The notes under the pieces are model-generated. The model searched no databases and was not told where the DNA came from. It was given only the letters and a program-made list of their open reading frames with translations. DNA of 64,000 nucleotides from G963667145 sp963676515 [NCBI: Candidatus Cloacimonadota bacterium] (GTDB lineage: Bacteria; Cloacimonadota; Cloacimonadia; G963667145), in assembly GCA_963676515.1 (NCBI GenBank), contig OY781061.1:806001-870000 (forward strand). The letters run 5' to 3'. The position numbers and the translations under genes are program-made. Numbering within the stretch: position 1 is the first letter of the stretch; each line of letters opens with the position of its first letter. Below are positions 27,201 to 64,000 of the stretch, one piece after another.

Positions 27201-27291
27201 AACTAGGGCATTTTTTATAGAATTTTCGTGTAGATTTTGAGAAAAATATTTTATTATAGTAGAAGTGCAATTTGAAAACTTAGGAGTTTGC

Positions 27292-29367
27292 ATGGCGAAG
27301 AAAGAAGATATCCGAAATATCGGCATAATGGCACATATCGATGCTGGGAAGACTACTACTACAGAGAGAATTTTGTTTTATTCTGGAAGAATCCACAGAA
27401 TGGGAGAGGTGCACGACGGAAACGCGACGATGGATTGGATGGACCAAGAGCAGGACAGAGGAATAACGATTACCTCGGCGGTCACTACGCTTAGTTGGAA
27501 AAAGAGGCAGATTAACATTATCGATACTCCTGGGCATGTAGATTTTACCGCAGAAGTGGAGAGAAGTTTGCGAGTTTTGGATGGAGCGGTAGGTGTTTTT
27601 TGTGGTGTAGGCGGTGTAGAGCCTCAGAGTGAAACAGTTTGGGCACAATCGGAGAGGTATAATATTCCCAAAATAGCATATGTAAATAAGCTGGATCGGG
27701 TAGGTGCGGATTTCGAGAAAACTTTGGAAAGCATCAAGCAAAGACTGGTTGGGGGAGCTTTAGCTATCCAATTTCCTCTGGGGAAAGAGGGAGAGTTTGA
27801 GGCGATAGTGGATGTGGTAAAAGGTGTTGCTTACTATTTTGACCAAGAAGAGTACGGTAGCAAGATGGTGGTCAAAGATATTCCTGATTTTGCTCAAGAT
27901 GAGTTTCATATGTATCGAGAGCTACTTCTGGACGCTTTGTCGGAAGTTGATGACGATTTTATGGAAAAGGTTTTGGAAGAGCAAGAGCTTGACCCAAACG
28001 AGATTGTGGCTGTTTTGCGTAAGGCGACGATCGCTTTGAAGGTTACACCTGTGCTTTGTGGCTCTTCTCTTAAGAATATGGGCGTACGGCTTTTGATGGA
28101 CGCTGTGGGTGATTTGTTACCTTCGCCTGTAGATAAGAAAGATTTCCAAGTTTTGGAGAAAGGGGAGTTGAAAAGTTTTTCTCCGAATGATAAAGATTCT
28201 TTGGCGTTGGTGTATAAAATCCAATTGGACAAACATATGGGTAAACTTTTGTTTGCGAGGATTTATTCTGGTAAAATCAGAAAAGGCGACCTTCTTATTA
28301 ACCAAGAGACGGGTAAAAAAGAGAAGGTGATGCGGATTTTGCAGATGCATTCTAATAAGACGACCGATTTGAACGAGGTAAGTTATGGCGATATCGCTAC
28401 TTTTGTGGGACCAAAAGATGTAAAGACTGGTCAAACTCTGGCAGGGAAAGGCGTGAGTGTAGAATTGCCCAAGATGAACTTCCCCGAAGCGGTAATATCG
28501 ATGGTGGTAGAGCCGCAAACTAAGGGCGATTACGACAAGTTGATAAACTCTTTGAAGCGATTGGAAGAGGAAGATCCTACTTTTTTCGTGAGAGAAGACG
28601 GCAACTCGGGGCAGATAGTTATCTCTGGAATGGGTGAACTGCACTTGGAGGTCTTGGTTTATCGGCTCAAGAATGAGTTTGGTGTGCAGGCAAATGTCGG
28701 CAAACCGCAAGTGGCGTATCGGGAGACAATCCTGAATGCTGTGGAGTATGAAGAGACTTTTGACAGAGAGATAAAAGGTAAAAGCCACTATGCGAAGGTG
28801 AAAGTTAGGGTTTCGCCTCTGTTGCAAAGCGAAGGAACGGGCAACAAAAACCTTTACCAGACAGCTCTTAGCTCTAACGAATTGTCGGAAGAATTTTTGC
28901 TGGCAGCCAAAGATGGTTCGTTGGGTGGTTGTGCCGCTGGTCCTATCTTTTCTTGGCCGGTCCGAGGCGTAAAAATAGAGCTTTTGGCAGCGGAGATGAA
29001 AGATGGCGAATCTTCGGGGTTGGCTTTTTCTATAGCTACCTCTACAGCTGTTAGTAGGGCTTTGTCACAGGCAAACGCTACCTTTTTGGAGCCAATCGTG
29101 AAGGCTGTTGTGTTGTCTCCAGAGGAGTATGTTGGCGACATTATTGCGGATTTGAATGGGAAAAGAGGAAAAGTTGTTGATATTCAGAATTTGGGTATTC
29201 GCCAGCAAGTAGTTTGCGAGGTTCCGATCAGCGAATTATTTGGTTATACGACCAGATTGCGGAATTTGTCGAAAGGTAGAGCTGTGATGAGTATGGAATT
29301 TTTGAAATACGATTTAGTGCCGAACAAGATAAAAGAGGCAATAATCGAAAAAACAAGAGGATTTTAA
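27292..29367 (+). CDS. fusA: Translation elongation factor G
   Basis: GTPase that moves tRNAs and mRNA through the ribosome. The 691-residue protein has G1 AHIDAGKT (14-21), switch I with RGITITSA, G3 DTPGHVDF, G4 NKLD (about 132) and the later EF-G domains ending with a domain IV/V block TRLRNLSKGRAVMSMEF. ATG 27292 follows AGGAG by 6 nt; a GTG nine codons earlier is in frame but lacks a site. It is isolated from str-operon partners (rpsL, rpsG, tufA), so it may be a second or relocated EF-G. Confidence 0.93.
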   Translation: MAKKEDIRNIGIMAHIDAGKTTTTERILFYSGRIHRMGEVHDGNATMDWMDQEQDRGITITSAVTTLSWKKRQINIIDTPGHVDFTAEVERSLRVLDGAVGVFCGVGGVEPQSETVWAQSERYNIPKIAYVNKLDRVGADFEKTLESIKQRLVGGALAIQFPLGKEGEFEAIVDVVKGVAYYFDQEEYGSKMVVKDIPDFAQDEFHMYRELLLDALSEVDDDFMEKVLEEQELDPNEIVAVLRKATIALKVTPVLCGSSLKNMGVRLLMDAVGDLLPSPVDKKDFQVLEKGELKSFSPNDKDSLALVYKIQLDKHMGKLLFARIYSGKIRKGDLLINQETGKKEKVMRILQMHSNKTTDLNEVSYGDIATFVGPKDVKTGQTLAGKGVSVELPKMNFPEAVISMVVEPQTKGDYDKLINSLKRLEEEDPTFFVREDGNSGQIVISGMGELHLEVLVYRLKNEFGVQANVGKPQVAYRETILNAVEYEETFDREIKGKSHYAKVKVRVSPLLQSEGTGNKNLYQTALSSNELSEEFLLAAKDGSLGGCAAGPIFSWPVRGVKIELLAAEMKDGESSGLAFSIATSTAVSRALSQANATFLEPIVKAVVLSPEEYVGDIIADLNGKRGKVVDIQNLGIRQQVVCEVPISELFGYTTRLRNLSKGRAVMSMEFLKYDLVPNKIKEAIIEKTRGF

Positions 29368-36296: not shown

Positions 36297-36824
36297 TTAC
36301 TCTTTTTCAAATGTGGAAGAATAGACTAGAGTAGAATCAGAAAAAGATGCAATAAGCTTTTCATTTTCGAGTTTGTAAAAAAGTGTTAATTCATATAATG
36401 TATCTACTGATTCACTATAATTAGTGCGTCCACCATTTTCTATAGAATAAGTCTGGTAGCGAGTATAAGAAGTTTTTAAGTATTGGACGGAAGTATTGAC
36501 TGTTGTCCCAGAATTGGTGACTTCTCCAAAATATACTTGGTTGAGAGTATCCGTTTCATTATATAGATCGAAAGTAGGATAAGAGATAGAGAAGATCATT
36601 TTAGCAACTACTATATTTTCGCTTGTTATGTTTCCTGTCCAATCTCCATCTAGGGGATGTGTTTCTGTAGTAGCTGTGGTGTCGGTCGTAGTTGTAGTGT
36701 CTGTGGTAGTTGTAGTGTTAGTGTCTTTTGTGTCATCATCATCGTCATTCCCAAAGATATTGCAAGCAACGAGAAGCAAGCTCAAGCCTACGATTAACAG
36801 CAATAATTTTAAAGATTTTTTCAT
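36297..36824 (-). CDS. Small surface lipoprotein A with Asp and Thr/Asp-rich linker
   Basis: A 175-residue predicted lipoprotein with lipobox LLVAC (Cys about residue 21). After NIFGN come five aspartates, then a low-complexity Thr-rich linker of repeated TTTTTD-like units, then a beta-rich body starting near HPLDGDWTGNI. The body is unlike that of its neighbour (36978-37490), while the first 36 residues are nearly identical (one Val/Gly change). The acidic stretch after the lipid-anchored cysteine may act as an outer-membrane or surface sorting spacer. Function is unknown. It has its own promoter copy and terminator. Confidence 0.85.
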   Translation of the reverse strand: MKKSLKLLLLIVGLSLLLVACNIFGNDDDDDTKDTNTTTTTDTTTTTDTTATTETHPLDGDWTGNITSENIVVAKMIFSISYPTFDLYNETDTLNQVYFGEVTNSGTTVNTSVQYLKTSYTRYQTYSIENGGRTNYSESVDTLYELTLFYKLENEKLIASFSDSTLVYSSTFEKE

Positions 36825-36916
36825 TTTTTCTCCTTAATGTTTTAATTCTTTATTTTCTGGTTAAAGTTTGAATGTGTAAAATGTCAAGAAATTTTATAGC
36901 AAAATAAAGAGAAAAG
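36728..36916. repeat. 189-bp duplicated 5' module, copy A
   Basis: This segment matches 37394-37582 with only a handful of substitutions and no length change. It spans the promoter, the 5' leader with AAGGAG, the signal peptide codons and the aspartate run of lipoprotein A. Homology stops abruptly inside the coding region just after the aspartates. Together with the shared terminators it marks a duplicated expression cassette. Confidence 0.92.
36860..36887 (-). promoter_or_regulatory. Promoter of lipoprotein A
   Basis: On the minus strand a perfect -35 TTGACA (36887-36882) is followed after 16 nt by TTTAAC (36865-36860) as -10-like hexamer. The layout equals that of copy B, where the -10 is TTTAAT. 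Confidence 0.6.
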
Positions 36917-36936
36917 TTGAAAAGTGCTTATATAAA

Positions 36937-36961
36937 AAAAGCCGAGAAAATCTCGGCTTTT
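36937..36961. terminator. Intrinsic terminator after lipoprotein B
   Basis: AAAAGCCGAG (36937-36946) pairs with CTCGGCTTTT (36952-36961), plus an additional A-T pair in the loop. Sequence and flanks (AAAGTGCTT...AAAAAAAGCC, TTGATTTAT) are nearly the same as at 36245-36269, showing that the terminator was duplicated with the lipoprotein gene. Confidence 0.88.
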
Positions 36962-36977
36962 GATTTATCAACTCGTC

Positions 36978-37490
36978 CTATTCTTTTTTAAATTTGTCCG
37001 CGTTTTCCCATGAACTAGAACTTGAGGAAAGGTAAAGAGTATCGTTTTCATTTTTGTAATAAAATGTGTCTTTGTTGTCGGCAGTTGTCCAAGCTTCCTC
37101 AGCCCACACTTCATCAGGATCTTCGACCGTTTTTTTTCTGAATTTTATATAAGTTAACACAACAACTTTAGGGTTGGCACTAGTGTCATTTTGGGAAACT
37201 TTGCTATAGCCTTCTTCTTTATTGAAGCTTGTTCTTGTGACAAATTTAATGTTGAGTTTATTTGTGTTTGATGGATATCGTGTGGAGTAATAATGGACAT
37301 CTGTTCCATTAGAAATAATCATTTTATCAGAACTAGATGGAGAATTGGTTTGATTCCATGTTCCATTTTGATCCCAAACTGTATCAGCAGTAGTTGTGTC
37401 ATCATCATCGTCATTCCCAAAGATATTGCAAGCAACGAGAAGCAAGCTCAAGCCTCCTATTAGCAGCAATAATTTTAAAGATTTTTTCAT
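36978..37490 (-). CDS. Small surface lipoprotein B, paralog with different body
   Basis: A 170-residue predicted lipoprotein. Signal peptide, lipobox LLVAC, NIFGN and the five-Asp run match lipoprotein A almost exactly. The remaining 135 residues (WDQNGTWNQTNSPSSS onward, with a late serine run SSSSSS) share no evident similarity with A, apart from ending in FKKE/FEKE. The body is polar, Asn/Ser/Thr-rich and probably beta-structured. Function is unknown. It is transcribed toward gene A but separated by its own terminator and the copy-A promoter, so each gene is a monocistronic cassette. Confidence 0.85.
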   Translation of the reverse strand: MKKSLKLLLLIGGLSLLLVACNIFGNDDDDDTTTADTVWDQNGTWNQTNSPSSSDKMIISNGTDVHYYSTRYPSNTNKLNIKFVTRTSFNKEEGYSKVSQNDTSANPKVVVLTYIKFRKKTVEDPDEVWAEEAWTTADNKDTFYYKNENDTLYLSSSSSSWENADKFKKE

Positions 37491-51894: not shown

Positions 51895-53085
51895 TTAGTT
51901 GAAAGGTTGGAGAGCTTTGTCTAAAATTCCGTTAATTTTGCAAATCAACATACCGTAGTTTGTAATTGGTGTGTTTTGCTCCTTGGCTCGGTAAAGTCGT
52001 CTTTTGACTTCCGTGTTGTTCATCATACAGCCTCCACAGTGGATTACCAGAGCCAGATGCTCCATATTTTCGGGGTAATCGCTGCCGACACTGAAGACGA
52101 ACTTTAGCTCTTTGCCTGTATATTTACTGAGCCATTTGGGAATTTTGTAGCGACCGATGTCGTCGCCTTGTGTGTGATGAGAGCAGGCTTCGGCTATCAA
52201 TATTGTATCGCCGTCTTGAAGTTTATCGATTTGCTCTATTCCTTCTAAGAGTAAATCAAGGTCTCCTTTGTAGCGAGCGAACACGATCGAAAATGTAGTA
52301 AAGAGAACATTCTTGGGAATAATCTCTTTTATTTGTGTTACAGCTTGCGAATCTGTGATAATCATCTTGGGATTGTCTAGCAAAGCTTCCGCCAGTTGTT
52401 CCGACTGGGTAACTATGGCGATTGCGTCGTTATCTAAGATATTTCTTAGCACCTGTACTTGAGGCAATATTAAGCGAGATTTGGGGGCGGAGTCATCAAT
52501 TGGGCAGTTTAGAACGACTTTATCGCTCTTTTTCAGCAGATCATCGAGTAAAAATTGCTTTTTTTTATGCTTTTCAGGCAAAATTTCGATAATTTTTTCT
52601 TTTAGTGCGACAATAGAGCTTTGATCTAAGCAAGAAACTTCTTGGCAATAAATGCCTAGATTATGACAAAATTTCTTGTTTTTAGGGTCAATTTTCAGTA
52701 AATCTACCTTGTTGAAGACAATTATTGTCTCAATTTCGAGATTTTTTAGCTTTTTTATCAATTCTTCGTCTTCACTAACGATTCCTTCCTCGGCGACGAC
52801 TAAGATAGCTAAGTCTGTTCTCATCAAGATTTGTAGACTAGCTTTGCGTCTTTTCTCTCCGAGTATTCCTTTATCATCTATGCCAGCTGTGTCGTAAAAA
52901 GTTACAGGTCCAACAGGAATGAGTTCGTATCTTTTGGCTACAGGGTCGGTGGTCGTGCCTCGCGTGGAGTCCACGATCGAGATATTTTGTTCTGTTAGGG
53001 CGTTTATCAGAGAAGATTTACCAGCGTTTATTTTGCCTATGATGGCGATATTGAGCCTTTCTCCTTTGGGTATAAGCTGTTTCAT
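51895..53085 (-). CDS. hydF: [FeFe]-hydrogenase maturation GTPase HydF
   Basis: Scaffold GTPase that carries the H-cluster precursor to the hydrogenase. The 396-residue protein has G1 GKINAGKSS, TTTDPVAKRYEL as switch I with G3 DTAGIDDKG, G4 NKVD, and the C-terminal iron-sulfur ligands in EACSHHTQGDDIGR and HCGGCMMN (the CxH...HCxxC pattern). It overlaps hydE by 4 nt (ATGA). Confidence 0.96.
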   Translation of the reverse strand: MKQLIPKGERLNIAIIGKINAGKSSLINALTEQNISIVDSTRGTTTDPVAKRYELIPVGPVTFYDTAGIDDKGILGEKRRKASLQILMRTDLAILVVAEEGIVSEDEELIKKLKNLEIETIIVFNKVDLLKIDPKNKKFCHNLGIYCQEVSCLDQSSIVALKEKIIEILPEKHKKKQFLLDDLLKKSDKVVLNCPIDDSAPKSRLILPQVQVLRNILDNDAIAIVTQSEQLAEALLDNPKMIITDSQAVTQIKEIIPKNVLFTTFSIVFARYKGDLDLLLEGIEQIDKLQDGDTILIAEACSHHTQGDDIGRYKIPKWLSKYTGKELKFVFSVGSDYPENMEHLALVIHCGGCMMNNTEVKRRLYRAKEQNTPITNYGMLICKINGILDKALQPFN

Positions 53086-54125
53086 AGTAATATCTCCTTA
53101 GATTGTTTAGTTTTTGTTTTATTGATGAAGTGTTTGGGATCTCCTGCGAGCCCTGGGTTTATGGTTTCGTTTAAGATAGTGGCGTAGTTTAACATTTCAG
53201 AATCGTCCACGAGGGCTTTATTTTCGTAAAGGGAGTAGTTATTTTTATAAGATTCGGGTGTTAAGTTTGGCATTAGGACATTGGCGCCTGCTTTTATACC
53301 TTTCAGATATCCTTCATTCTCTATAGTTTGTAGGGCTGTAGACGCCACGATATTTATATCTGGGAGCAATATTCGGCAAATAGCAATGACTTTTAAAGTT
53401 AGTTCTAGATTTTGTCGAAGGCTTATGCTGCTTGATTTATGCCACATAGGGGTGTTTTGGCAAGGGATATAAGGTCCTAGCCCTAGCATATCAACATCGA
53501 GTTTTTGGAAGAAGAGGATGTCTTGGGCGATGCTTTCCAGAGTTTGCCCAGGAAAGCCAACTAAAATACCAGTTCCTGTCTGATATCCGATATCTTTAAG
53601 AAAATGTAAGCATTCTAATCTGTTGCTGTAGCTCATCTCCGGTGGATGGATTTCTTTGTAGAGAGACGGGTTAGATGTCTCAATCCTCAAGAGATAACGG
53701 TCAGCTCCAGAGTCAAACCATCTTTGATAAGTTTCTTTTGTTTGTTCCCCTGTAGACAGCACAACTTTAAAGTTTTTGTTAGTTTTTTTGGCAAATTTGA
53801 TGATATTGTTTATATTTTTGACAAATTGTTGGTCTGTTCTTTCTCCTGATTGGATCACAAAAGATGCGTATCCTTGCTTATTTATTTTCTCAATATTCAT
53901 TTTCATCTGAGGCAAAGAGATTTCAAACCTTTCTATTTTTTCATTTTTTGCTCGAATGCCACAATAGAAACAGTTTCTCGTGCAAAAATTACTGTACTCA
54001 AGCAACGCTCTGAGGAATGTCACAGCACCCAAATTGGTTAATTTTGTGTGGTAGGCACGGTTAAAGAGCTCTTGACTCTCTTTTTTGCTCAGGAGAGCAA
54101 GAATCTCTTTTTTATTCATTTGCAT
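53082..54125 (-). CDS. hydE: [FeFe]-hydrogenase H-cluster radical-SAM maturase HydE
   Basis: Radical-SAM enzyme that processes the HydG product during H-cluster assembly. The 347-residue sequence has the cluster motif NFCTRNCFYCGIR, SGERTD, RIETSNPSLY, GILVGFPGQT and GLGPYIPCQNTP, typical of HydE. The ATG at 54125 has no ribosome site and begins only 7 nt after a -10-like TCTTAT, so the transcript may be leaderless; a second ATG lies two codons in. It leads the hydE-hydF unit, divergent from a FadR-type regulator gene. Confidence 0.96.
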   Translation of the reverse strand: MQMNKKEILALLSKKESQELFNRAYHTKLTNLGAVTFLRALLEYSNFCTRNCFYCGIRAKNEKIERFEISLPQMKMNIEKINKQGYASFVIQSGERTDQQFVKNINNIIKFAKKTNKNFKVVLSTGEQTKETYQRWFDSGADRYLLRIETSNPSLYKEIHPPEMSYSNRLECLHFLKDIGYQTGTGILVGFPGQTLESIAQDILFFQKLDVDMLGLGPYIPCQNTPMWHKSSSISLRQNLELTLKVIAICRILLPDINIVASTALQTIENEGYLKGIKAGANVLMPNLTPESYKNNYSLYENKALVDDSEMLNYATILNETINPGLAGDPKHFINKTKTKQSKEILL

Positions 54126-54242: not shown

Positions 54243-54953
54243 ATGGCGATAAAAAGAGAAAAGCTTTCTGAATTGGTTAGGAAAAAGTTGCGTAAAATAG
54301 TGCAAGGTAAGCCGACGGGATTTAAATTACCATCAGAAAATGATTTGGCGAAGCAGTTCTCGGTGAGCAGGTCTACTATCAGAGAAGCGGTCAGTACCTT
54401 AATAGCTGAGGGGCTAATATTGGTGCGACAAGGTAAAGGGTTGTTTGTCAGAAGTGAGCAAAAAGATCCAGTTTTAGGAGCAAAAGAGTCGCTGGAGGAT
54501 AAAGATAAGCTTTGGCATGCCTATATTATGTCTAATTTATTGGAATGCAATAATATTATCGATATTGCTTCAGATATTTCCGAAGATCAGGTAAACAGAC
54601 TTGAGAAAAATATCAAAAGATTTGTTGATTGTACAGAGAAAGAGGTTGATCAGGAGAAAAGATTACATACTTTGATGGAAATAGATCATGAGTTTCATTT
54701 CTTGTTGGCTAGTTTTTCTCATAACAGTTTTCTTTTTGCCTTTTTGGACTACCTTTTTATTAGGACAAGAGCGTCTCGTCGTTATTTTTTGGGTTCTGCG
54801 GAGAAGGAGCAAAGAATGATCTGGGAACACAGAAGTATGGTGGAAGCTTTGGCTAAAGGAACGGGATTAGCGGCAAAAGCTTTAATGGAAGGACATTTAG
54901 ACAATTATTTGGAATATTTGGTACACGAATTGGGTAATTTTAAAAAAAATTAG
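54243..54953 (+). CDS. GntR/FadR-subfamily transcriptional regulator
   Basis: A 236-residue regulator. The winged helix (about 5-75) reads LPSENDLAKQFSVSRSTIREAV and RQGKGLFVR. The C-terminal FCD ligand domain contains DHEFHFLLA, IWEHRSMVEAL and GHLDNYLEYL, where the Asp/His residues usually bind a metal and a small carboxylate. ATG 54243 follows AAGGAG by 6 nt; a TTG 72 nt earlier is in frame but overlaps the -35 box. Divergent orientation from hydE suggests control of hydEF, which is inference. The ligand is unknown. Confidence 0.9.
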   Translation: MAIKREKLSELVRKKLRKIVQGKPTGFKLPSENDLAKQFSVSRSTIREAVSTLIAEGLILVRQGKGLFVRSEQKDPVLGAKESLEDKDKLWHAYIMSNLLECNNIIDIASDISEDQVNRLEKNIKRFVDCTEKEVDQEKRLHTLMEIDHEFHFLLASFSHNSFLFAFLDYLFIRTRASRRYFLGSAEKEQRMIWEHRSMVEALAKGTGLAAKALMEGHLDNYLEYLVHELGNFKKN

Positions 54954-54983
54954 CACTTTTCACCTTTTTTCAGTAAAAAGTGC
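54953..54983. terminator. Convergent terminator between fadR-type gene and trpB
   Basis: GCACTTTT (54953-54960) pairs with AAAAGTGC (54976-54983) around a 15-nt loop, beginning at the regulator's stop codon. It is placed to end transcripts of both the plus regulator gene and minus trpB (ending 55000). Confidence 0.65.
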
Positions 54984-54999
54984 CAAAATAATTGCTTTT

Positions 55000-56178
55000 T
55001 TACATATAGTTAGATTCAATATATTCTAAATCTTTGTCTCCTCGTCCAGAGAGATTTATCAGTATTTTCTCACTATTTTTGCATTTTTTTGCTAGTTTTT
55101 TTACAAAAGCAACAGCATGAGAGCTTTCTAGAGCAGGAATTATCCCTTCACTCTTGCATAAAGTGAAAAAGCCTTCTAGAGCTTCTTTGTCTGTAATAGT
55201 GTGATAGCTTACCTTTTTTATATCTTTTAGATAGCTGTGTACCGGACCTACTCCTGGGTAGTCTAGTCCACTGGCGATGGTGTTTACTGGAGAAGGATTT
55301 CCTTGTTCATCTTGGAGCAAGTAACTTCTGAAACCGTGTAAAATGCCTGGAGTTCCTTTAGTGAGAGTGGCAGCGTGTTCTCCTACCTTGAAAGACTGTC
55401 CTGCTGGCTCTACTCCGTGCATTTTTACGCTTTCATCTTCGAGAAAAGCTCTAAAAAGACCGATAGCGTTGCTACCTCCACCGATGCAAGCTACTAAGTG
55501 ATCTGGTAATCCGCCAGTGAGTTCTAAAAATTGTTGGCGAGCTTCTTGCCCCACGATGGACTGGAAATCTTGTACCATTTGAGGAAAAGGGTGTGGTCCT
55601 ACAACTGATCCGATAGCATAAAATTGGTTTTTGATGTCTTTTAGGTACTCTTGGAAAGCGATGTCAACGGCTTCTTTTAGTGTAGCGAGCCCGATAGTTA
55701 CTGGTATTACCTTGGCACCCAGTAATTTCATTCTGATTACATTCGGTTTCTCTTTTTCAATATCTACTGCTCCCATATATATATCGCACTCCAGTCCGAG
55801 TAAAGTAGCAGCGGTGGCTAGAGCTACACCGTGTTGTCCTGCACCTGTTTCGGCGACAACTTTCTTTTTGCCCATTTTTTTGGCTAAAAGCACTTCCCCG
55901 AGACAATGGTTGAGTTTATGAGCTCCTGTGTGGTTCAGGTCTTCTCTCTTTAAGTATATTTGAGCTCCGTATTTTTTGCTCAAACTCTTGGCAAAGTATG
56001 TGGGAGTAGGTCTGCCTGAGTAGTGTTTATAGAGATCGTGTAGCTCTTCTATGAAGTTGGGATCTTTTTTTAGTTGTTGGTACTGTTTATCGATATAATT
56101 TAGTTCTTTTTTAAGTTCTTCGGGTACGAAAACGCCTCCGTATTCTCCGAAAAATCCATTTATAGTGTCAAATTGCAT
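55000..56178 (-). CDS. trpB: Tryptophan synthase beta subunit
   Basis: PLP enzyme joining indole and serine to give tryptophan. The 392-residue TrpB1-type sequence has [12 protein letters not shown], the PLP lysine in HTGAHKLN (K88), [11 protein letters not shown] and the phosphate loop [10 protein letters not shown], ending LSGRGDKD. There is no trpA or other trp gene nearby, so the subunit may use free indole, or partner genes lie elsewhere. AAGGA lies 6-7 nt before the ATG. A leader peptide with two terminal Trp codons is 94 nt upstream, implying control by tryptophan supply. Confidence 0.96.
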
Positions 56179-56258
56179 ATTATTTTCCTTGAGTTATGAT
56201 TTTTTTAAAGGGTATGGGATAATGCGAGTCTAAAGAAAGCCCGCAATTAGGATTTTTA

Positions 56259-56277
56259 TGGTAGGGTAGCCCTACCA
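56259..56277 (-). promoter_or_regulatory. Attenuator-like hairpin in the trpB leader
   Basis: TGGTAGGG (56277-56270) pairs perfectly with CCCTACCA (56266-56259) around a 3-nt loop. The 5' arm contains the second Trp codon and the stop of the leader peptide, so a ribosome stalled there would prevent folding. A second, weaker stem (GCGGG with CUCGC) lies about 15 nt downstream. I see no U-run that would make a classical terminator, so the switch may act on translation or differ from the E. coli type. Confidence 0.65.
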
Positions 56278-56349
56278 CCATCGCAATGTAGAACAAAAGT
56301 TATTGGAGAAAAGAAGAGAGTAACGAAAAAGAACACAGGTTTTTTTCAT
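56272..56349 (-). CDS. trp leader peptide (25 residues, ends Trp-Trp)
   Basis: Minus-strand ATG 56349 is preceded by a perfect AGGAGG (56365-56360) with 10-nt spacing. The frame runs M-K-K-T-C-V-L-F-R-Y, continues through a Ser/Leu/Phe-rich middle, and ends L-R-W-W-stop (TAG 56274-56272). Two adjacent TGG codons right before the stop are the hallmark of tryptophan-sensing leader peptides. It lies between an aminotransferase gene and trpB on the same strand. The role is inferred from position and codons; the peptide itself has no other expected function. Confidence 0.8.
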   Translation of the reverse strand: MKKTCVLFRYSLLFSNNFCSTLRWW

Positions 56350-56366
56350 ATTGTTACTACCTCCTT

Positions 56367-56395
56367 TCAATGAAAATTTTGAGTCAATGAAAATT
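56367..56395. repeat. 12-bp direct repeat upstream of the trp leader
   Basis: TCAATGAAAATT occurs at 56367-56378 and again at 56384-56395, a 17-bp period, ending within the aminotransferase stop codon. The position just before the leader ribosome site suggests a possible regulator site or chance duplication. On the minus strand it includes a TTGACT. Confidence 0.5.
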
Positions 56396-57692
56396 AAGCG
56401 GTACTTTTGTCAACAATTAAATATTGGTGGAGCAGTTCGGATAATAAGTGAGGAATCTCTTTTATCTCTTCAGGAGAAGCAACATATGAAAGACGCAGTT
56501 GATAGTGCTTGTATTTTGAGTTTGAGAGATAAAAACTGGTTAATGGGGAAAAAAGTAGAGTAAAATCACCATTTTTTGTGCAAACTTTGCCTTTTTCAGC
56601 ACAAAATTGACAAAATTTTTCTATTTTAAAGCTTTTTGGTACGAGATTTCGCAAATCCACGATAGAGTAGAGAGCAGATTCAGGGGAAGAGACGATAACC
56701 TTTGGAATCCTCTTTTTTAGTTCAATTGTAGTAGAAATTATCAATTTTTGGTAGTATTTTCGTAAATCTTCGTACCATTTTTGTAAATCTTCCTCTTTTT
56801 CAGTGGAAATACCTCCAACTATGTATTGACCTATCGCTCCAGCACAAAGATGAGATGATGCGGAGATGATAGCTTTTTGGATAAACTTTTTGTTGTCGCT
56901 GACCAAAGCTCCAATTCTTAGTCCGCATCCGTTTAATCCTTTGGAGACGGTTTCGATGCTTATTCTTCTCTTGCTGATGCCGGGAGCTTTTTCTTCGTCG
57001 ATTTTCCAGATGGAGGGAGATTCTAATTGTGTATAGTGCAAAAATCGGTAAGCTTCGTCGCTAATCATCCACAGGTTGTATTTTACGCAAAGTTTAGCTA
57101 TTTTGACCATTTCTTCTTGTGAGAGCAATTTTCCTGTGGGATTGTCGTAAGGTATGACGAGAATAGCACTAGGGTTGTGTTTTTTGATGATTTCTTCTAA
57201 ATCTGTGTCACAGCGGAAGTGTCCATCTGTGCAGAGAGAGTAGGGTAGCACGACTATTGGTATCTTGTAGGAGTTTGCTATGCTGATGTAGTTGGAATAG
57301 GTAGGCTCGGAAATGATGAGGGGTCTTTGAGTTTGGCAGCAGCCCAGAAGTGCCAAATCCATAGCTTGTGAGCCGCCATTGGTGACGATTAGTTCTAAAT
57401 CGTCTGTTTTGGCTCCGCAGAGCGAGATCATCTTCTTGAAAGCTCTTTTCGTGTCTTCTCTGCCAGAAGTGGCGGTGTATTTCACTATACCTTGTCCCAG
57501 TTCGGGGTCTTTTCCGATCTCTTTGAGTCTTTTTAACATAGCTGGGTGTATCGGCAGGCTGACATTTCCGATGGAGGCGTTGATTGCTTTTGTGGAGTCT
57601 GTGCGGTTGGAAAAGCATTGCTGAGCTTGTCTGATAGCCGAAATTGTTAAATTTTGAAAGTATTTGGAAAAATCAAGTTGTTTATCACACAT
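56394..57692 (-). CDS. Class I/II PLP-dependent aminotransferase
   Basis: A 432-residue fold-type I aminotransferase. Conserved parts include GQGIVKYTATSGRED, TNGGSQAMDLAL, PYDNPTGKLL, DEAYRFLHY and the PLP lysine in ETVSKGLNGCGLRIG with its Arg ligand. The substrate cannot be deduced; aspartate/aromatic types are possible. AGGAG lies 6-7 nt before the ATG. The gene precedes the trp leader and trpB on the same strand, so a link with tryptophan or indole-pyruvate metabolism is conceivable but unproven. Confidence 0.9.
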   Translation of the reverse strand: MCDKQLDFSKYFQNLTISAIRQAQQCFSNRTDSTKAINASIGNVSLPIHPAMLKRLKEIGKDPELGQGIVKYTATSGREDTKRAFKKMISLCGAKTDDLELIVTNGGSQAMDLALLGCCQTQRPLIISEPTYSNYISIANSYKIPIVVLPYSLCTDGHFRCDTDLEEIIKKHNPSAILVIPYDNPTGKLLSQEEMVKIAKLCVKYNLWMISDEAYRFLHYTQLESPSIWKIDEEKAPGISKRRISIETVSKGLNGCGLRIGALVSDNKKFIQKAIISASSHLCAGAIGQYIVGGISTEKEEDLQKWYEDLRKYYQKLIISTTIELKKRIPKVIVSSPESALYSIVDLRNLVPKSFKIEKFCQFCAEKGKVCTKNGDFTLLFSPLTSFYLSNSKYKHYQLRLSYVASPEEIKEIPHLLSELLHQYLIVDKSTA

Positions 57693-58266: not shown

Positions 58267-61200
58267 ATCAAAGCATTGAGAATTTTTAGTGTTTTTGCTT
58301 TATTTTGTGCTTTCCTGCTAACAGGCTGTACCGATGTGATCATAAGTGAGGACGCTTTGGATCCGCCAGATACGGTCGCAGCCTCTATGGGAAGCTATGA
58401 TGATTATATTTTGGTGGACTGGTACTCTGCTGGTGAGAAGGTTAGTAGTCTTATTTCTTACGATTTGTATCGAGCAACATCGGAGAGTGGGGAGTATAAT
58501 CTGCTGGCTGATGGTACTAAGTCTCGGACTTATGCGGATGAGAGAAGCACTACCAATCTGGAGTATGGGCAGGTTTACTATTATAAAGTTCGCAAAGAGA
58601 AGGGTGATAGAAAATCTATTTATAGTCCTGTAGGTGCGGGATATTTGCAAGTGCATACTATCGTGGGTAACTCGCTAGAGGCTTCGAAAGGTACTTATGT
58701 GGGAAAGGTGAAGCTGAGCTGGTCGGCATCAGATGATATGGCTGATTACGATGCTCAAGAGTTCTTTTATCGGGTGTATTATGCGGCAGACGAGTCTCCT
58801 ACTTTGGAAAGCTCTTATCAAGATTTTGATGATTTGAGTGTGACTGAGGTCTTCGTAGAAGACCTATCTATTGGGGTTAATTACTATTTTGCTGTGCAGG
58901 TGGTTTCTAAGAATTTTAGCTTTATTAAGTCTAAGCTGTCCCTTGCAGCTCAAGGGTGTGTGAAAATACCATCACCAGAGACTGTAGAAGGGTCTAAGGG
59001 TACTTATGCGGATTCTGTGGAGGTTAGCTGGTCGGAAGTGACTGGAGTAGATGGCTTTATCGTTTATTACAAGAGAAATCTCGAGAGCGAAGATTATGTT
59101 ATCTTGGCAGAGGTTTCTGCGGGTAGTGCAGAGTATATTAGCAGAAAGGTTTATCATAAGCCTACAAGCAAGGATGTGACTTACTTATATGATGTGAGGT
59201 CTGTGCTTTCGGATGGTTTGTCCGAAATTGTGGAGCGTGTGGAAAGCGAGGATGGCTATTTGCAAAATCTTGGTTTCTGCGGAATAGGCGTGCCAGAGAA
59301 CTTTAGCCTTGAGTATCGAAATGAAGTTTTGGTTTTGAGTTGGGATAAATTAGAGAATGTTACTTTTTATGAGGTTACTGCTGCCAGAGACCTCTTCGGT
59401 GTAGCTTCAGATACGCTTCGCTTTGACCTTGATGATGTTGTGTCTGTGGGTGATAGGATGGAGTACTCTTTCCCAGATGAAAATCTTAGCTTGGGTGTTT
59501 CTTATGTGTTTGCTTTGAGAGGTGGTAGGAAAGTAGACGATTATCATGAAGTTTTTTCTGGATTTTCCAGTTTGATAAAAGGCTCTTTGCCTGTCCCTAG
59601 CCCGTATGTGCTGTATGCTAGCAAAGGGAAAGACGATCTGACTATTACCTGGAGAGTGGATGAGAATATCACAAAATGCCTTCTTTATTATGGTAAGTAT
59701 GTGGGTAAATACTACTATCTGGGAGAGGCTAAATCTGCAGATGGAGTGTTTAGTCTTGTGCATAATAAGGCGATGGATGCTAATTTCCAAGAAGGGACGA
59801 AGTATTATTATAAAGCTAAGTCTGTCGTTGGTACGAATACTTCTGACTTTTCGGAGATGGATACTGGATGGACCAGAGTAGCTCCGCCAGAAGGGTTTAG
59901 AGCTGATAGCACTTCTTGCTATACAATTGATTTGAGTTGGTTGCCGTCGAATGGAGCCTCTTATTATGTGCTGTATAGAGATCAAAAAGATGCACCTTTG
60001 GATACGATTTATGATGATGGCGAGTCTAATTATTACACCTATCACGATGAGGGAACGCTCTCTCCTAGCACAAGTTATACTTATTACTTGAGAGCGAGCA
60101 GTGACTTTGCGGGTGTTTCTGATTTCGCCGATACGGTGGTAACTACCGCCTTGGAAGCTCCTTACAATCTAGAGTGCGTGAATGATGCGGTAGGTTCTGT
60201 CAAACTGAGCTGGGAAGTGAGAGGTACAGAGAACTCGGCTTTGGTGACGAAGGTGTATCGCTACGAAAAAGATGCTCCTTTGACCTCGGGACAATGGCTT
60301 ACAGATGTGAGTATTATTGGGACTGAAGCGGAGGATTTCACGGGTGTGCCGGGCAAAGTTTACAATTACTATGTGACGGTGTCTCTGCCGAAGATAGGTG
60401 AGTCTGTACCGAGTAATGTGGTTGTGGGATTTTCCAAGCTGGAAGCTCCTACAGGATTGTCGGTGAGCAAAGGGAAGTTCTCGGACAAGATAGAGGTGAG
60501 TTGGACGGGAAATCCTGACCAAGGTGCTGAGCGTTATAAAGTTTATAGACAAACTTTTACACAAGCAAAAGTGGCAGAGGGTGTTTGGGAAGTAGTGGCG
60601 AGCGTGGCTTGTTCTGAAGAGAAGAAGACGATTACTTATTACGACTCTTACCTGATGAAAAGCGATAAGTATTACGCTTACTATTTGCAAGCTGATAGGA
60701 CCGACTATGCGGCAGCAGGTGGAGACGCTCTGACCTCTAGAATAGATACGGGCTATGTCTCTATCGCTCCAGTGACGATACTGGATGCTTCATGGGGAGA
60801 TTACGCAGATAGTGTGCGGATAGTGTTCGAGAGGAACGCTCTTGCCCAGCAGTATTGGGTGTATTATAGATTGGACACTTTTTCGTCGTTTAAGCCTCTG
60901 AATTTCCAAGCTGACGGATCTAATATCCTCTTGGCAAGTGTTGTGGGGAGCGAAGACACGCTGGAATACACCATGGATGTGAAGACGAATGCTGGTCTTC
61001 GCGATGGCGAGATGTTGCTTTTGTCGATGAGGGCTTTTAGCGATGCGTGTCACAATGTGGCGAGCGATGACTGGGCTTCAGCTTTTGGGAATCAATATCC
61101 AGCTTATCTGAAGTTCCCTGCTCCGAGTAGCTTAATTGCTGAGAAGGGTGGCAAGCTGAATGTAGAGCTCAGCTGGCAAGCGAACTTTGAGGCGAACTTG

Positions 61201-64000
61201 GATGGTTATGAGGTCTGGCGACGGGAGCGTAACAACACGAGTTCTGATTACGAGAAGATAGACGAAGTGAGTACAGAGAGCTACCAAGATTTGAAATATG
61301 ACAAGGGGCGAATGTACTCTTATCAGGTTAGGGCTTACAGCCAGAGCTTGCAGAAGAAACTCAAGCTGTTTTCAGGGCTGGATTCGGGATTAGTAGTTTC
61401 AGGGTTTTCAAATGTAGATTCTGGGTTTGTTCGTTTGGATGAGATTAGCGGTTTTGCTGTTTCGGGGGAAAATGGCACAGCGAAACCGGATACGATTTTT
61501 ATAGAGCTGAACTCTGTGGGTGATAAGGCTGAATATAGTTTTTATTACAAAGAAGAGGGAAGTAGTAATCCTTTCGCGGAGCTAAGTCCAGCATTGCAAA
61601 ACTTTAGGCTAGAGAGCGGAGTGTGGAAAGGTAGCTGGGCTGTGGTAGATCGCAATAAATATGAAATCTTTGCTACGGCGACCTCGGGGCATATCAAAGA
61701 CGATGGCTCGAAAGATAGCGTCAAGAGTGAGACATTGGTGGGATATCGGACTCCTGCTCCTCCCGACAGTATTACGGCGAGCAAGTTTAATTATCCTGAC
61801 AAAATAAAGGTAGAGTGGGAAAATGAAAACTCAGCCAACTCTTATAACATAAAAAGAACTACCTTGGAAACTGCTGATGTTACTTATTACCGTGGAGTGT
61901 CGGCAGATGATGACACACCATCTTACGGATTGGATGACGATGGTGGAACGAATGATATGACTCTTACTGATAAGGCTGTATCGAGAGGATACTCTTATCT
62001 GTATCAGGTAGAGGCTGTGTGCGATAACGGTGCGACGGGCTACTCTGAGTATGTGGATGCTACCGATAGTGTGGCAGCGACAGGATATGTTCAGCTGGGA
62101 GAGGTGGAAGCTGTCTACGCTAGCAAAGGGAAGTATTATCAATACATAGATGTTTCGTGGGATGCTGCGGCTTTAGCCGATAGCTATGCGGTTTATCGCT
62201 TGGACATGTCATCTGGAGATGATAAGTCAGATTTCCTCTACTATGGTAATGATCCTATAGCTACAGTGGACTCACTGCGGTATCTTGATGTTCCGCCAGA
62301 TGTGAATGCTTACTACTATCGGATATTGCCGTGCGTGTGGGTAGATGGCAATAAGATGGAAGCGGAAGCTTCTAAGGAGCTCTTTACAGATGAGCCGAAG
62401 GGATGGAGGGCTCTGGAGCCTCCGGTGATGGACTCGATTACGACGCACTTGGTGGACACTATCGAGATTAGTTGGGACAAGCTAACTGATGCGGTGAGCT
62501 ATCGCCTGTATAAGCAAGAGGTTGATTTGTTCGGCAAGGTCGACCCAACCTTCTTAGTGGCTGTGGGCGACACGATGATTTATCAAGATGTGATATCGCA
62601 AGAGTATGCGGGGCTTGGTTATTATTACTTCGTGCAAGGGGTAACGGCGACTGGTCAGACGACAGCACTGAGTGATGCCTCGGATGTGGGAGCGGCTAAG
62701 CTGTACCCAGTGCAAAGCATAGATATGACGGTGATATCTGCGGATGATAAGGTGCAAGTTACTTGGGTGGTTGCGGACAATACCGACTTCGTGCGGATTG
62801 AATATGCTTCAGCATCAAATACAAATGCGGGCAAAGTTTTCTCTGCGGAGTATGATAGCTGGAGACCGAACTTGAGTGAGGGCGAGTGGGGCTATGTGAG
62901 CATCGTGTCTATCGGCAAATACAATGAGTCCGAAGCGGTGAGGGACAGTGTGCTAGCACCGCTGAAAGCAGTGGAAATCATAAGCATATCCAGAGGCAAA
63001 GATGACACGATACAGGTGGTGGTGAAGACCAACAGAGAACCAACTCTGATAGCTGTATATCGCTGTGATGACTATGAGATTTGTCAAAACTCCGAAGATT
63101 CTCTCTACGCTTTCTCGCAAAGGGGAAGCGAGGGTGTTGAGAAGGTTCTCTTCTCTGCAGCAGGGCTAGCTCCTACGAAACCATGGGTGCAAGATGGAGA
63201 TGAGTATCAGCTCAACGATGTGGATGCTGCTTTAAATAAAGGTCAGAAATATTTTTATAGAGTAAATTATACGAGGGATGCGTCAAATGTCGTTTGGTCG
63301 GAGATGTCTAGCTACTCTAGCCAGACATATGGCTGGACGACACCAGAAGTGCCTGTGATAGATAGTGTGAGCAAAAATGAGCTAGGGGAAATCGAAGTTA
63401 AATGGAATCAGGTTGCTTATGGCGATGCTTATCGATTGTCCAAGAGCTGGGTGGAAGATGGAGTGCAGATGTATGATACGATAGCTGCTTCCAACCAAAA
63501 AAGCGACACTGTATATAGTGATGAGAAGGTGATACCAGGGAAATACTACACTTATGCTGTTCAGACTTATGTGCTCTTGAGTGATGCTTATTCTGCTCTG
63601 AGCCAAGCTGATAGTGGCTATGCGAAGCTAGTGGCACCTATTATTGATGCCTCCAAAGGTTTGTTTGAGGACTCTGTTCGGCTGCGGTGGGATGTGGGTG
63701 AGGGAGTAAAAGACCCGGGAGCAGGAGCAGAGCAGTTCATAATCTCCAGAGGGTCGGCTAGTGTGTCTGCATTGTTGCCGATAGATACGATAGATTATGG
63801 TGGAGAGCTAGAGGTCGTTTATTACGACACACTAGGGCTAAGTGCAGATGGCTTTGACTTCTACTATTATCGGGTGTCTGCAGTAGCTGGAGGCTTGACT
63901 TCTGAGGCGTCAGAGCTTGATTCTGGTTGGGTGAAGTTATCGCCTGTTTACGATTTGGCAGCTACAGATGGAAATTATACAGACAGTGTCTATATCACTT
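58267..64000 (+). CDS. Giant multi-domain fibronectin-type-III lipoprotein (3' end beyond window)
   Basis: One plus-strand frame is open from 58255 to the right edge, more than 1,911 codons, with no stop. Its N-terminus is a lipoprotein signal peptide with hydrophobic FALFCAFLLTGC (lipobox LTGC). The body is a chain of about 19 diverged fibronectin-III-like modules of 80-115 residues, each opening with a strand like ASKGTYADSVEVSW and containing YxVYR...YYYxV turns. Such arrays act as extended adhesins or surface scaffolds, which is inference here. The start is odd: AAGGAG (58254-58259) is 7 nt before an ATC codon (58267), and the first standard start in frame is TTG 58276, too far from that site. 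ATC or TTG initiation remains open. The minus strand beneath shows only short spurious frames. Confidence 0.88.
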   Translation, partial: MKALRIFSVFALFCAFLLTGCTDVIISEDALDPPDTVAASMGSYDDYILVDWYSAGEKVSSLISYDLYRATSESGEYNLLADGTKSRTYADERSTTNLEYGQVYYYKVRKEKGDRKSIYSPVGAGYLQVHTIVGNSLEASKGTYVGKVKLSWSASDDMADYDAQEFFYRVYYAADESPTLESSYQDFDDLSVTEVFVEDLSIGVNYYFAVQVVSKNFSFIKSKLSLAAQGCVKIPSPETVEGSKGTYADSVEVSWSEVTGVDGFIVYYKRNLESEDYVILAEVSAGSAEYISRKVYHKPTSKDVTYLYDVRSVLSDGLSEIVERVESEDGYLQNLGFCGIGVPENFSLEYRNEVLVLSWDKLENVTFYEVTAARDLFGVASDTLRFDLDDVVSVGDRMEYSFPDENLSLGVSYVFALRGGRKVDDYHEVFSGFSSLIKGSLPVPSPYVLYASKGKDDLTITWRVDENITKCLLYYGKYVGKYYYLGEAKSADGVFSLVHNKAMDANFQEGTKYYYKAKSVVGTNTSDFSEMDTGWTRVAPPEGFRADSTSCYTIDLSWLPSNGASYYVLYRDQKDAPLDTIYDDGESNYYTYHDEGTLSPSTSYTYYLRASSDFAGVSDFADTVVTTALEAPYNLECVNDAVGSVKLSWEVRGTENSALVTKVYRYEKDAPLTSGQWLTDVSIIGTEAEDFTGVPGKVYNYYVTVSLPKIGESVPSNVVVGFSKLEAPTGLSVSKGKFSDKIEVSWTGNPDQGAERYKVYRQTFTQAKVAEGVWEVVASVACSEEKKTITYYDSYLMKSDKYYAYYLQADRTDYAAAGGDALTSRIDTGYVSIAPVTILDASWGDYADSVRIVFERNALAQQYWVYYRLDTFSSFKPLNFQADGSNILLASVVGSEDTLEYTMDVKTNAGLRDGEMLLLSMRAFSDACHNVASDDWASAFGNQYPAYLKFPAPSSLIAEKGGKLNVELSWQANFEANLDGYEVWRRERNNTSSDYEKIDEVSTESYQDLKYDKGRMYSYQVRAYSQSLQKKLKLFSGLDSGLVVSGFSNVDSGFVRLDEISGFAVSGENGTAKPDTIFIELNSVGDKAEYSFYYKEEGSSNPFAELSPALQNFRLESGVWKGSWAVVDRNKYEIFATATSGHIKDDGSKDSVKSETLVGYRTPAPPDSITASKFNYPDKIKVEWENENSANSYNIKRTTLETADVTYYRGVSADDDTPSYGLDDDGGTNDMTLTDKAVSRGYSYLYQVEAVCDNGATGYSEYVDATDSVAATGYVQLGEVEAVYASKGKYYQYIDVSWDAAALADSYAVYRLDMSSGDDKSDFLYYGNDPIATVDSLRYLDVPPDVNAYYYRILPCVWVDGNKMEAEASKELFTDEPKGWRALEPPVMDSITTHLVDTIEISWDKLTDAVSYRLYKQEVDLFGKVDPTFLVAVGDTMIYQDVISQEYAGLGYYYFVQGVTATGQTTALSDASDVGAAKLYPVQSIDMTVISADDKVQVTWVVADNTDFVRIEYASASNTNAGKVFSAEYDSWRPNLSEGEWGYVSIVSIGKYNESEAVRDSVLAPLKAVEIISISRGKDDTIQVVVKTNREPTLIAVYRCDDYEICQNSEDSLYAFSQRGSEGVEKVLFSAAGLAPTKPWVQDGDEYQLNDVDAALNKGQKYFYRVNYTRDASNVVWSEMSSYSSQTYGWTTPEVPVIDSVSKNELGEIEVKWNQVAYGDAYRLSKSWVEDGVQMYDTIAASNQKSDTVYSDEKVIPGKYYTYAVQTYVLLSDAYSALSQADSGYAKLVAPIIDASKGLFEDSVRLRWDVGEGVKDPGAGAEQFIISRGSASVSALLPIDTIDYGGELEVVYYDTLGLSADGFDFYYYRVSAVAGGLTSEASELDSGWVKLSPVYDLAATDGNYTDSVYIT

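What the first reader, a model, noticed from the sequence alone, without database searches (positions are those of the whole stretch)
56179..56365. Trp-Trp leader peptide controlling a standalone trpB
AGGAGG, a 25-codon ORF ending Trp-Trp-stop, and a perfect 8-bp hairpin whose 5' arm includes the last Trp codon precede trpB. There is no classic U-run terminator, so the mechanism may be a translational or Rho-linked version. A leader for trpB alone, downstream of an aminotransferase gene, is uncommon.
Basis: partly seen in the sequence, partly recalled or inferred. Interest (0 to 1): 0.75.

Follow-up and report, generated by a model that had tools for sequence, protein, structure and literature searches.

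The report
Trp-codon leader before solo trpB
A short decoy gene ending in two tryptophan codons sits in front of a lone tryptophan-making gene and most likely switches that gene on when tryptophan runs short; this is a familiar kind of switch in an unusual, stripped-down form.

Summary
A short ORF with terminal WW and a good SD appears in 0.015% of shuffles. trpB has no trpA beside it. Homologous trpB loci show that such leaders recur: 17 of 165 distinct loci sampled carry tandem-Trp leaders, 15 of these with U-run terminators; 34 of 165 have trpR directly upstream; none has both. In nine of them the 1:2 helix covaries. The window's leader differs: its Trp codons are the last two (others have 2-15 codons after them), and it lacks a classic terminator and antiterminator. 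It has a weak composite hairpin made from the leader's own end, followed by GCTTTCTTT (-16.5 kcal/mol). Best reading: a ribosome stalled on Trp-Trp covers this hairpin and lets trpB be transcribed. Translational and Rho outputs are not excluded. No close relative was reachable, so the output step is inferred. A new variant of a known kind, of moderate interest.

The parts
56360..56365 (-). Shine-Dalgarno AGGAGG of the leader ORF
56272..56349 (-). leader ORF MKKTCVLFRYSLLFSNNFCSTLRWW, stop TAG
56275..56280 (-). two UGG control codons, the last two codons before the stop
   Evidence: 0 codons between last W and stop, versus 2-15 in 17 leaders of relatives
56308..56368 (-). hairpin that buries the leader's own SD (GAAAGGAGG/CUUCUUUUC and AGUAAC/GUUACU)
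   Evidence: -17.1 kcal/mol, z -3.65, 0 of 200 shuffles as stable; leader SD unpaired probability 0.02 in the free RNA
56258..56278 (-). hairpin over last Trp codon and stop, 8 perfect pairs plus an outer G-U, 3-nt loop
56241..56286 (-). composite terminator-like hairpin: 5' arm is the end of the leader (codons just before the Trp pair through the stop), 3' arm AUUGCGG
   Evidence: -16.5 kcal/mol; as strong in 0.3% of 3,000 shuffles of the spacer, 4.2% of 3,000 if the upper hairpin is kept; z -1.70 for 56240-56300, 9 of 200 shuffles as stable
56232..56240 (-). interrupted U-tract GCUUUCUUU after the composite hairpin
56223..56245 (-). second hairpin UGCGGG/CUCGCA, competes with the composite hairpin but has the U-tract in its loop
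56186..56190 (-). trpB Shine-Dalgarno AAGGA
55000..56178 (-). trpB, tryptophan synthase beta subunit, 392 aa, no Trp residue
   Evidence: TIGR00263 560.5 bits; 0 W of 392
54942..54986 (-). U-run terminator directly after trpB; the next gene is on the other strand, so no trpA follows
56394..57692 (-). upstream class I/II aminotransferase, possibly in the same transcript

Best explanation
The element is a Trp-codon leader attenuator for a standalone trpB. Ribosomes translate the 25-codon leader. When charged tRNA-Trp is scarce, a ribosome stalls on the two terminal UGG codons and physically covers the 5' arm of the hairpin built from the leader's own end (UUGCGAUGGUGGUAGGG). The composite hairpin then cannot form as RNA polymerase passes the GCUUUCUUU tract, and trpB is transcribed and translated. 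When tryptophan is plentiful the ribosome terminates at the adjacent UAG and leaves, the hairpin forms, and part of the transcripts end there. Because Trp codons and stop are adjacent, stalled and terminating ribosomes cover nearly the same RNA, so the signal would be how long the ribosome stays rather than where it stops. Shown: the leader, SD, WW-stop, hairpins (predicted), U-rich tract, trpB without neighbouring trpA, and the leader class at homologous trpB genes. Inferred: translation of the leader, stalling, termination at the tract, response to Trp.
For: Leader with terminal WW and SD is rarer than chance (0.015% of shuffles). It lies directly before a Trp-pathway gene that itself has no Trp in 392 aa, against 0.87% Trp across the 49 window proteins counted. 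Homologous trpB genes carry tandem-Trp leaders in 17 of 165 distinct loci, 15 of them with U-run terminators ending 46-141 nt before the position aligned with window TrpB residue 1; the window's composite hairpin ends 62 nt before trpB. Leader and adjacent trpR never occur together (0 overlap of 17 and 34 in 165), so the leader stands where another Trp sensor stands elsewhere. The composite hairpin plus U-tract is one of 12 such sites at or below -16 kcal/mol on both strands of 64 kb, among them the trpB-end terminator. Leaders whose codon runs overlap terminator hairpins have been proposed for actinobacterial ilvB (PMC1262725, passages).
Against: The composite hairpin is weak at its base (two G-U pairs at the bottom, a 2-nt and a 7-nt bulge) and its U-tract is interrupted; with the upper hairpin kept, 4.2% of shuffles do as well, the fold z-score of the stretch is only -1.70, and 5 of the 12 strong sites lie in sense coding sequence, so false positives are common. 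No antiterminator of the classic type was seen, and hairpin 2 has the U-tract in its loop. The leader's SD is buried (unpaired probability 0.02), so efficient leader translation would have to be co-transcriptional. In the source I saw, changing the candidate control codons of the S. coelicolor ilvB leader had no effect on regulation (PMC1262725), so an overlap of codon run and terminator need not mean codon control. No close relative was found, so nothing in the window's own lineage shows conservation; none of the 60 Spirochaetota or Verrucomicrobiota loci L095-L154 has a WW leader.
Confidence: 0.5

Rival explanations
1. Translational attenuation: leader codons just before the Trp pair (AUUGCG, 56287-56282) or the same motif in the spacer (AAUUGCG, 56248-56242) pair with the trpB start region (UGCAAUU, 56177-56171) and block initiation; a ribosome stalled on Trp-Trp covers the leader copy and frees the start codon.
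For: Both stems exist (-8.9 and -9.8 kcal/mol helix energy). Predicted accessibility of the start codon rises from 0.57 to 0.75 when the leader's end is masked. A uORF proposed to work by start-site occlusion and Rho is described for E. coli toiL/topAI (PMC12121999, abstract and outline).
Against: The effect is small and the SD hardly changes (0.31 to 0.34), and it is not specific: a ribosome on the stop, one at the leader start, or ribosomes covering the leader up to about codon 21 with the hairpin free give 0.74-0.76 too. 6-7 bp matches are common by chance over 200 nt; conservation could not be tested.
Confidence: 0.17
2. Rho-linked attenuation: after the leader ribosome leaves, Rho ends transcription in the untranslated spacer; a ribosome stalled on Trp-Trp blocks Rho loading, as in the tna operon but with the opposite signal.
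For: The spacer is C-rich and G-poor (23 C, 10 G in 93 nt; up to 16 more C than G per 78 nt, reached by 0.5% of sense coding windows and 3.2% of all windows). Leaders with codon runs near the stop and no terminator were assigned tentatively to Rho in mycobacterial cys operons (PMC1262725, passages).
Against: Four other gene-upstream regions in this window reach 15-17 and two more reach 14, so the signal is not special. A stalled ribosome would prevent the hairpin and expose more C-rich RNA downstream, which is the wrong sign.
Confidence: 0.12
3. The leader ORF is not a sensor: WW is accidental or the ORF encodes an unrelated small protein, and the hairpins have other roles.
For: No relative with this leader could be found; 114 of 165 distinct homologous loci (L022 counted among them) have neither a TGGTGG leader nor a detected adjacent trpR; one TGGTGG ORF in the survey, L022, looks accidental.
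Against: Chance estimate 0.015% in shuffles, position directly before a Trp gene, a hairpin on the Trp codons, and the recurrent leader class in the same gene clade.
Confidence: 0.1
4. TnaC-like arrest: free tryptophan makes the nascent peptide arrest at the stop codon and raises trpB.
For: Trp residues lie next to the stop, and there is no classic terminator.
Against: The wrong sign for a synthesis gene, and the peptide has no Pro or Asp; TnaC's critical Trp12, Asp16 and Pro24 are recalled, not taken from a call.
Confidence: 0.03

Closest known systems
trpL-type transcription attenuators (E. coli trp operon, recalled; trp operons of Corynebacterium and Streptomyces, PMC1262725, passages seen)
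   Same: SD, short ORF with tandem UGG codons, hairpin over the control codons, Trp-pathway gene downstream. That paper also reports a candidate attenuator before a trpB2A pair in C. diphtheriae.
   Different: No antiterminator and no classic U-run terminator; UGG codons are the last two before the stop; a single gene without trpA beside it.
Tandem-Trp leaders before trpB in Bacteroidota/Chlorobiota, Delongbacteria and the phylum of L052 (titled Neomarinimicrobiota), found here (L009, L012, L030, L155, L159 and others)
   Same: Same TrpB clade, tandem UGG leader in the upstream region.
   Different: They have a U-run terminator (15 of 17), 2-15 codons after the last Trp, and in the nine aligned leaders a covarying 1:2 helix.
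Chlamydia trpR-trpL-trpB intergenic leaders (PMC3937554, passages seen)
   Same: A proposed Trp-rich leader between an upstream gene and trpB in a reduced Trp locus.
   Different: There trpR is adjacent and trpA follows; here the upstream gene is an aminotransferase and no trpA follows.
Leaders with control-codon runs near the stop and missing attenuator parts (cys operons of Mycobacterium; ilvB leaders overlapping terminators; PMC1262725, passages seen)
   Same: Control codons near the stop; attenuator parts missing (cys) or codon run overlapping the terminator hairpin (ilvB).
   Different: Other amino acids and other lineages.

Membership tests
Leader-peptide (trpL-type) transcription attenuator | short ORF with SD and tandem codons for the regulated amino acid | tested here: met
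Leader-peptide (trpL-type) transcription attenuator | hairpin overlapping the control codons (1:2) | tested here: met
   (predicted)
Leader-peptide (trpL-type) transcription attenuator | U-run intrinsic terminator between leader and structural gene | tested here: inconclusive
   no classic one; composite hairpin with interrupted U-tract at 56286-56232
Leader-peptide (trpL-type) transcription attenuator | mutually exclusive antiterminator (2:3) | tested here: not met
   among the 40 strongest stems listed none joins the hairpin's 3' arm (56266-56258) to the segment between it and the U-tract; with the ribosome masked in, none forms there in the predicted folds
Leader-peptide (trpL-type) transcription attenuator | regulated gene belongs to the same amino-acid pathway | tested here: met
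   TIGR00263 trpB
Leader-peptide (trpL-type) transcription attenuator | response to charged tRNA-Trp level | not testable with these tools
   needs an experiment
TnaC arrest leader | Trp12, Asp16, Pro24 (recalled) | tested here: not met
   the peptide holds no Pro and no Asp
Rfam Trp leader, T-box and other curated RNA families | covariance-model score at gathering threshold | tested here: not met
   0 matches in 64 kb; only two weak miRNA matches (E 0.37 and 2.6) at 56100-56450
TrpR-regulated trpB | trpR gene directly upstream, or GTTTCT/AGAAAC operator half-sites | tested here: not met
   upstream gene is an aminotransferase; no GTTTCT or AGAAAC at 56150-56420. The half-site motif was judged by eye from spirochaete loci
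Standalone TrpB | trpB without adjacent trpA | tested here: met
   next gene downstream is on the other strand and the gene upstream is an aminotransferase. Whether trpA exists elsewhere could not be tested: no genome held

The most novel reading that the evidence does not exclude
A one-hairpin, time-coded attenuator: Trp-Trp-stop is folded into the 5' arm of the terminator itself, so the ribosome's dwell time at the leader's end, not its position, decides whether trpB is transcribed, with no antiterminator at all. It would be a minimal form of amino-acid attenuation.
Probability: 0.35. Interest if true: 0.55.

Novelty: new variant of a known kind. Interest (0 to 1): 0.4.

Why it matters
It adds a case where attenuation would control a lone trpB, plausibly a salvage gene (indole plus serine to Trp; function inferred from the family), rather than a full operon. 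The survey around it shows that sampled members of one widespread TrpB clade carry either a trpR next door or a Trp leader, never both in 165 loci. If the single-hairpin reading is right, it shows how little RNA is needed for amino-acid sensing by a ribosome, and it can be tested in E. coli with a short reporter.

Tried and rejected
Rejected as best reading: classic three-state attenuator (no antiterminator seen, no classic terminator). Riboswitch or T-box. TnaC-like arrest (peptide lacks the recalled residues, wrong sign). TrpR operator. Viral contigs gave no relatives. The organism could not be placed: no genome held, and its EF-G is at best 43-48% identical in 21 of 23 genomes searched (2 had no match at the cut-off), so the phyla reachable through my loci seem not to include it. 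The TrpB tree puts the window on a long branch beside L056 and L072, which have trpR, at SH-aLRT 92, below the starred level. trpB searches of the phyla of G001 and G002 gave 0 of 194 each at E 1e-172, with apparently the same genomes in both; the cut-off was too strict, since G001 and G002 themselves, which hold L056 and L072, were not counted, so those two answers show little. LBCA-TrpB is the best PDB match, but only 2 of its 6 standalone residues match by my reading of the alignment and an inferred numbering offset. Literature: the listings showed me no paper on leaders for trpB without trpA; the nearest are Chlamydia and C. diphtheriae trpB2A. Most subscription papers are not held, and most listed papers were not opened.

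Limits of the survey: L022 (GTG start, no terminator) was judged spurious and dropped from the leader count; 11 duplicate loci were merged; 6 of 176 loci have under 300 nt upstream. Only TGGTGG leaders within 450 nt were sought. trpR was sought with three TrpR proteins by tblastn (E 1e-5, within 400 nt), so divergent ones can be missed. Downstream ORFs were checked for trpA only for the 143 loci then held: 51 had a same-strand ORF over 150 codons starting within 250 nt, and trpA was not among the 25 of 31 Pfam families shown. The scan kept 80 of 282 relatives out of 400 pattern matches; searches kept the best 30 loci of 201 of 296 and 266 of 288 matching genomes; searches matched 3 of 13, 1 of 249, 18 of 149, 5 of 395 and 9 of 132 genomes at strict cut-offs. 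So 17 and 34 of 165 are not prevalence estimates.

Full report
Observation. On the minus strand the window holds AGGAGG (56365-56360), ATG at 56349, a 25-codon ORF MKKTCVLFRYSLLFSNNFCSTLRWW and TAG at 56274-56272. The last two codons are UGG UGG. A hairpin of 8 perfect pairs, 9 with an outer G-U, covers the last Trp codon and the stop. trpB starts 93 nt after the leader's stop (56178) and is a clear TIGR00263 member (560.5 bits, cut-off 392.45). The upstream gene, ending 44 nt before the leader ATG, is a class I/II aminotransferase. In 20,000 dinucleotide shuffles of the 215-nt intergenic region, a short ORF with WW near its end and an SD core of at least 5 nt arises in 0.015%.

Surroundings. 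trpB is not followed by trpA: a U-run terminator lies at 54986-54942 and the next gene is on the other strand. TrpB has no Trp in 392 residues, against 168 of 19,239 (0.87%) over the 49 window proteins counted. Whether trpA or other trp genes exist elsewhere is unknown, since no genome is held for this window. No Rfam family matches the window at gathering score, and only two weak miRNA models reach E<5 in 56100-56450.

Relatives. 176 loci with TrpB 61-72% identical were gathered from one collection scan and several whole-genome searches; 165 are distinct. By record titles and by the phylum searches they come from Spirochaetota, Verrucomicrobiota, Bacteroidota, Chlorobiota, Thermodesulfobacteriota, Pseudomonadota, Campylobacterota, Zixiibacteriota, Neomarinimicrobiota, Delongbacteria and others. 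Of the 143 loci held, 51 have a sizeable same-strand ORF just downstream, and trpA is not among the 25 of 31 Pfam families shown for them; as far as checked this is a clade of trpB genes without trpA next to them. TGGTGG leader ORFs occur in 17 of 165 distinct loci (L022 dropped as spurious); 15 of the 17 have a U-run terminator before trpB; L160 and L162 have a degenerate one. None of the 60 Spirochaetota and Verrucomicrobiota loci L095-L154 has a WW leader, two of them with under 50 nt upstream. A trpR gene is detected directly upstream in 34 of 165, and none has both (0.016 by a hypergeometric count that ignores kinship). Fifteen of 36 candidate upstream ORFs from the first loci match Pfam Trp_repressor. 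114 of 165 have neither.

The homologous leaders work as classic attenuators on paper. Nine of the ten Bacteroidota/Chlorobiota leaders were aligned (L069 left out), and helices were chosen by eye from these same sequences, which favours them. The helix between early leader codons and the post-leader segment keeps pairing through changes on both sides at 5 of 9 pairs, with 87% of cells paired. Over both helices 93.3% of cells pair and the covariation score is 0.245, reached by 0 of 500 shuffles; the number of pairs with a double change is reached by 19 of 500 and the number of pair types by 319 of 500; slid versions stay lower, the nearest (+3) at 60.9% and 0.186. The rows are related, so these are not probabilities. 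The terminator helix pairs in all nine, with 6 of its 8 pairs invariant. The antiterminator (AGGTGGAA with TTCCACCT) pairs in 87% of cells but shows no covariation (500 of 500 shuffles as high).

How the window differs. Its Trp codons directly precede the stop (0 codons between; 2-15 in the 17 relatives). Therefore a ribosome stalled at Trp and one waiting at the stop cover nearly the same RNA, and the classic position code (stall versus stop) cannot work; dwell time must carry the signal (inference). There is no classic terminator and no antiterminator stem among the 40 strongest stems. The trpB-end terminator is canonical, so at least one canonical terminator exists in this genome.

A candidate output. 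The end of the leader, UUGCGAUGGUGGUAGGG (56286-56270), and the following RNA fold into a composite hairpin ending in AUUGCGG (56241), followed at once by GCUUUCUUU. Its energy is -16.5 kcal/mol; only 12 sites on both strands of the 64 kb reach -16 with a U-rich tail by the scan's rules, 5 of them in sense coding. With the spacer shuffled 0.3% of sequences do as well; with the upper hairpin kept, 4.2%; the z-score of the slightly longer stretch 56240-56300 is only -1.70. It ends 62 nt before trpB, inside the range of terminator ends in relatives (46-141 nt before the position aligned with residue 1). A ribosome on UGG UGG would cover its 5' arm. This gives the right sign: starvation, stall, no hairpin, trpB on. 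The structure is weak at its base and bulged, so it stays a candidate.

Other outputs. Masking the leader's end raises predicted accessibility of the trpB start codon from 0.57 to 0.75 but the SD only from 0.31 to 0.34; placing the ribosome on the stop, at the leader start, or over the leader with the hairpin left free gives 0.74-0.76 as well, so the effect is not specific to stalling. Stems AUUGCG/UGCAAU and AAUUGCG/UGCAAUU could mediate it. C-over-G excess reaches 16 per 78 nt, met by 0.5% of sense coding windows and 3.2% of all windows, but four other gene-upstream regions here reach 15-17. A strong hairpin buries the leader's SD (z -3.65, 0 of 200; unpaired probability 0.02); a ribosome could load before the 3' arm is made, so leader translation may be limited to the time of transcription (inference; similar self-limitation of the E. 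coli trp leader is recalled).

Known kinds. Chlamydia has proposed trpL leaders between trpR and trpB (PMC3937554, passages). Actinobacteria have leaders with control codons near the stop and no terminator (cys), codon runs overlapping a terminator (ilvB, where codon changes had no effect in S. coelicolor), and a candidate attenuator before trpB2A in C. diphtheriae (PMC1262725, passages). An E. coli uORF proposed to control start-site occlusion with Rho is described (PMC12121999, abstract and outline). A TrpB with high standalone activity is described, with no leader mentioned in what I saw (PMC11917138, outline and passages). The window element is best filed as a new variant of leader-peptide attenuation, with the terminator feature inconclusive and the antiterminator feature not met; it works like an attenuator without being shown to be a trpL-type one.

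Limits. The organism's own lineage was not reached: EF-G at best 43-48% identical in 21 of 23 genomes searched, TrpB on a long branch. Conservation in kin, the strongest test, is missing. I put the probability that this is a Trp-sensing leader at about 0.8, and that the output is the composite hairpin at about 0.5 overall. On re-checking I lowered the translational rival from 0.18 to 0.17 because its effect proved unspecific.

Noticed in passing
loci L001-L190: In sampled loci of this trpB clade the local Trp sensor is either an adjacent trpR (34 of 165 distinct loci) or a tandem-Trp leader (17 of 165), never both; 114 have neither.
   Followed up: partly
window 56308-56368, minus: The leader's own SD and start lie in a hairpin more stable than all 200 shuffles (z -3.65), including AGTAAC/GTTACT arms.
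   Followed up: partly
window 58276-64000, plus: Giant open reading frame of 1,908 codons running off the window: lipoprotein-like N-terminus followed by many fibronectin-III-like repeats (judged by eye; no domain search done).
   Followed up: no
window 36297-37490, minus: Two tandem genes with nearly identical N-termini (MKKSLKLLLLI-GLSLLLVACNIFGNDDDDD) and different remainders, putative lipoproteins.
   Followed up: no
window 27265-29367, plus: EF-G is at best 43-48% identical to EF-G in 21 of 23 genomes searched, so either the lineage is very divergent or this is a secondary paralogue.
   Followed up: partly
window 51895-54125, minus: Adjacent hydrogenase maturation genes hydE and hydF suggest an anaerobe with an [FeFe] hydrogenase.
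   Followed up: no
L160 and L162 (from the phylum search around L052, titled Neomarinimicrobiota): Triple-Trp leaders before trpB whose terminator hairpin is separated from a short U-tract, a possible intermediate between the classic form and the window's.
   Followed up: partly
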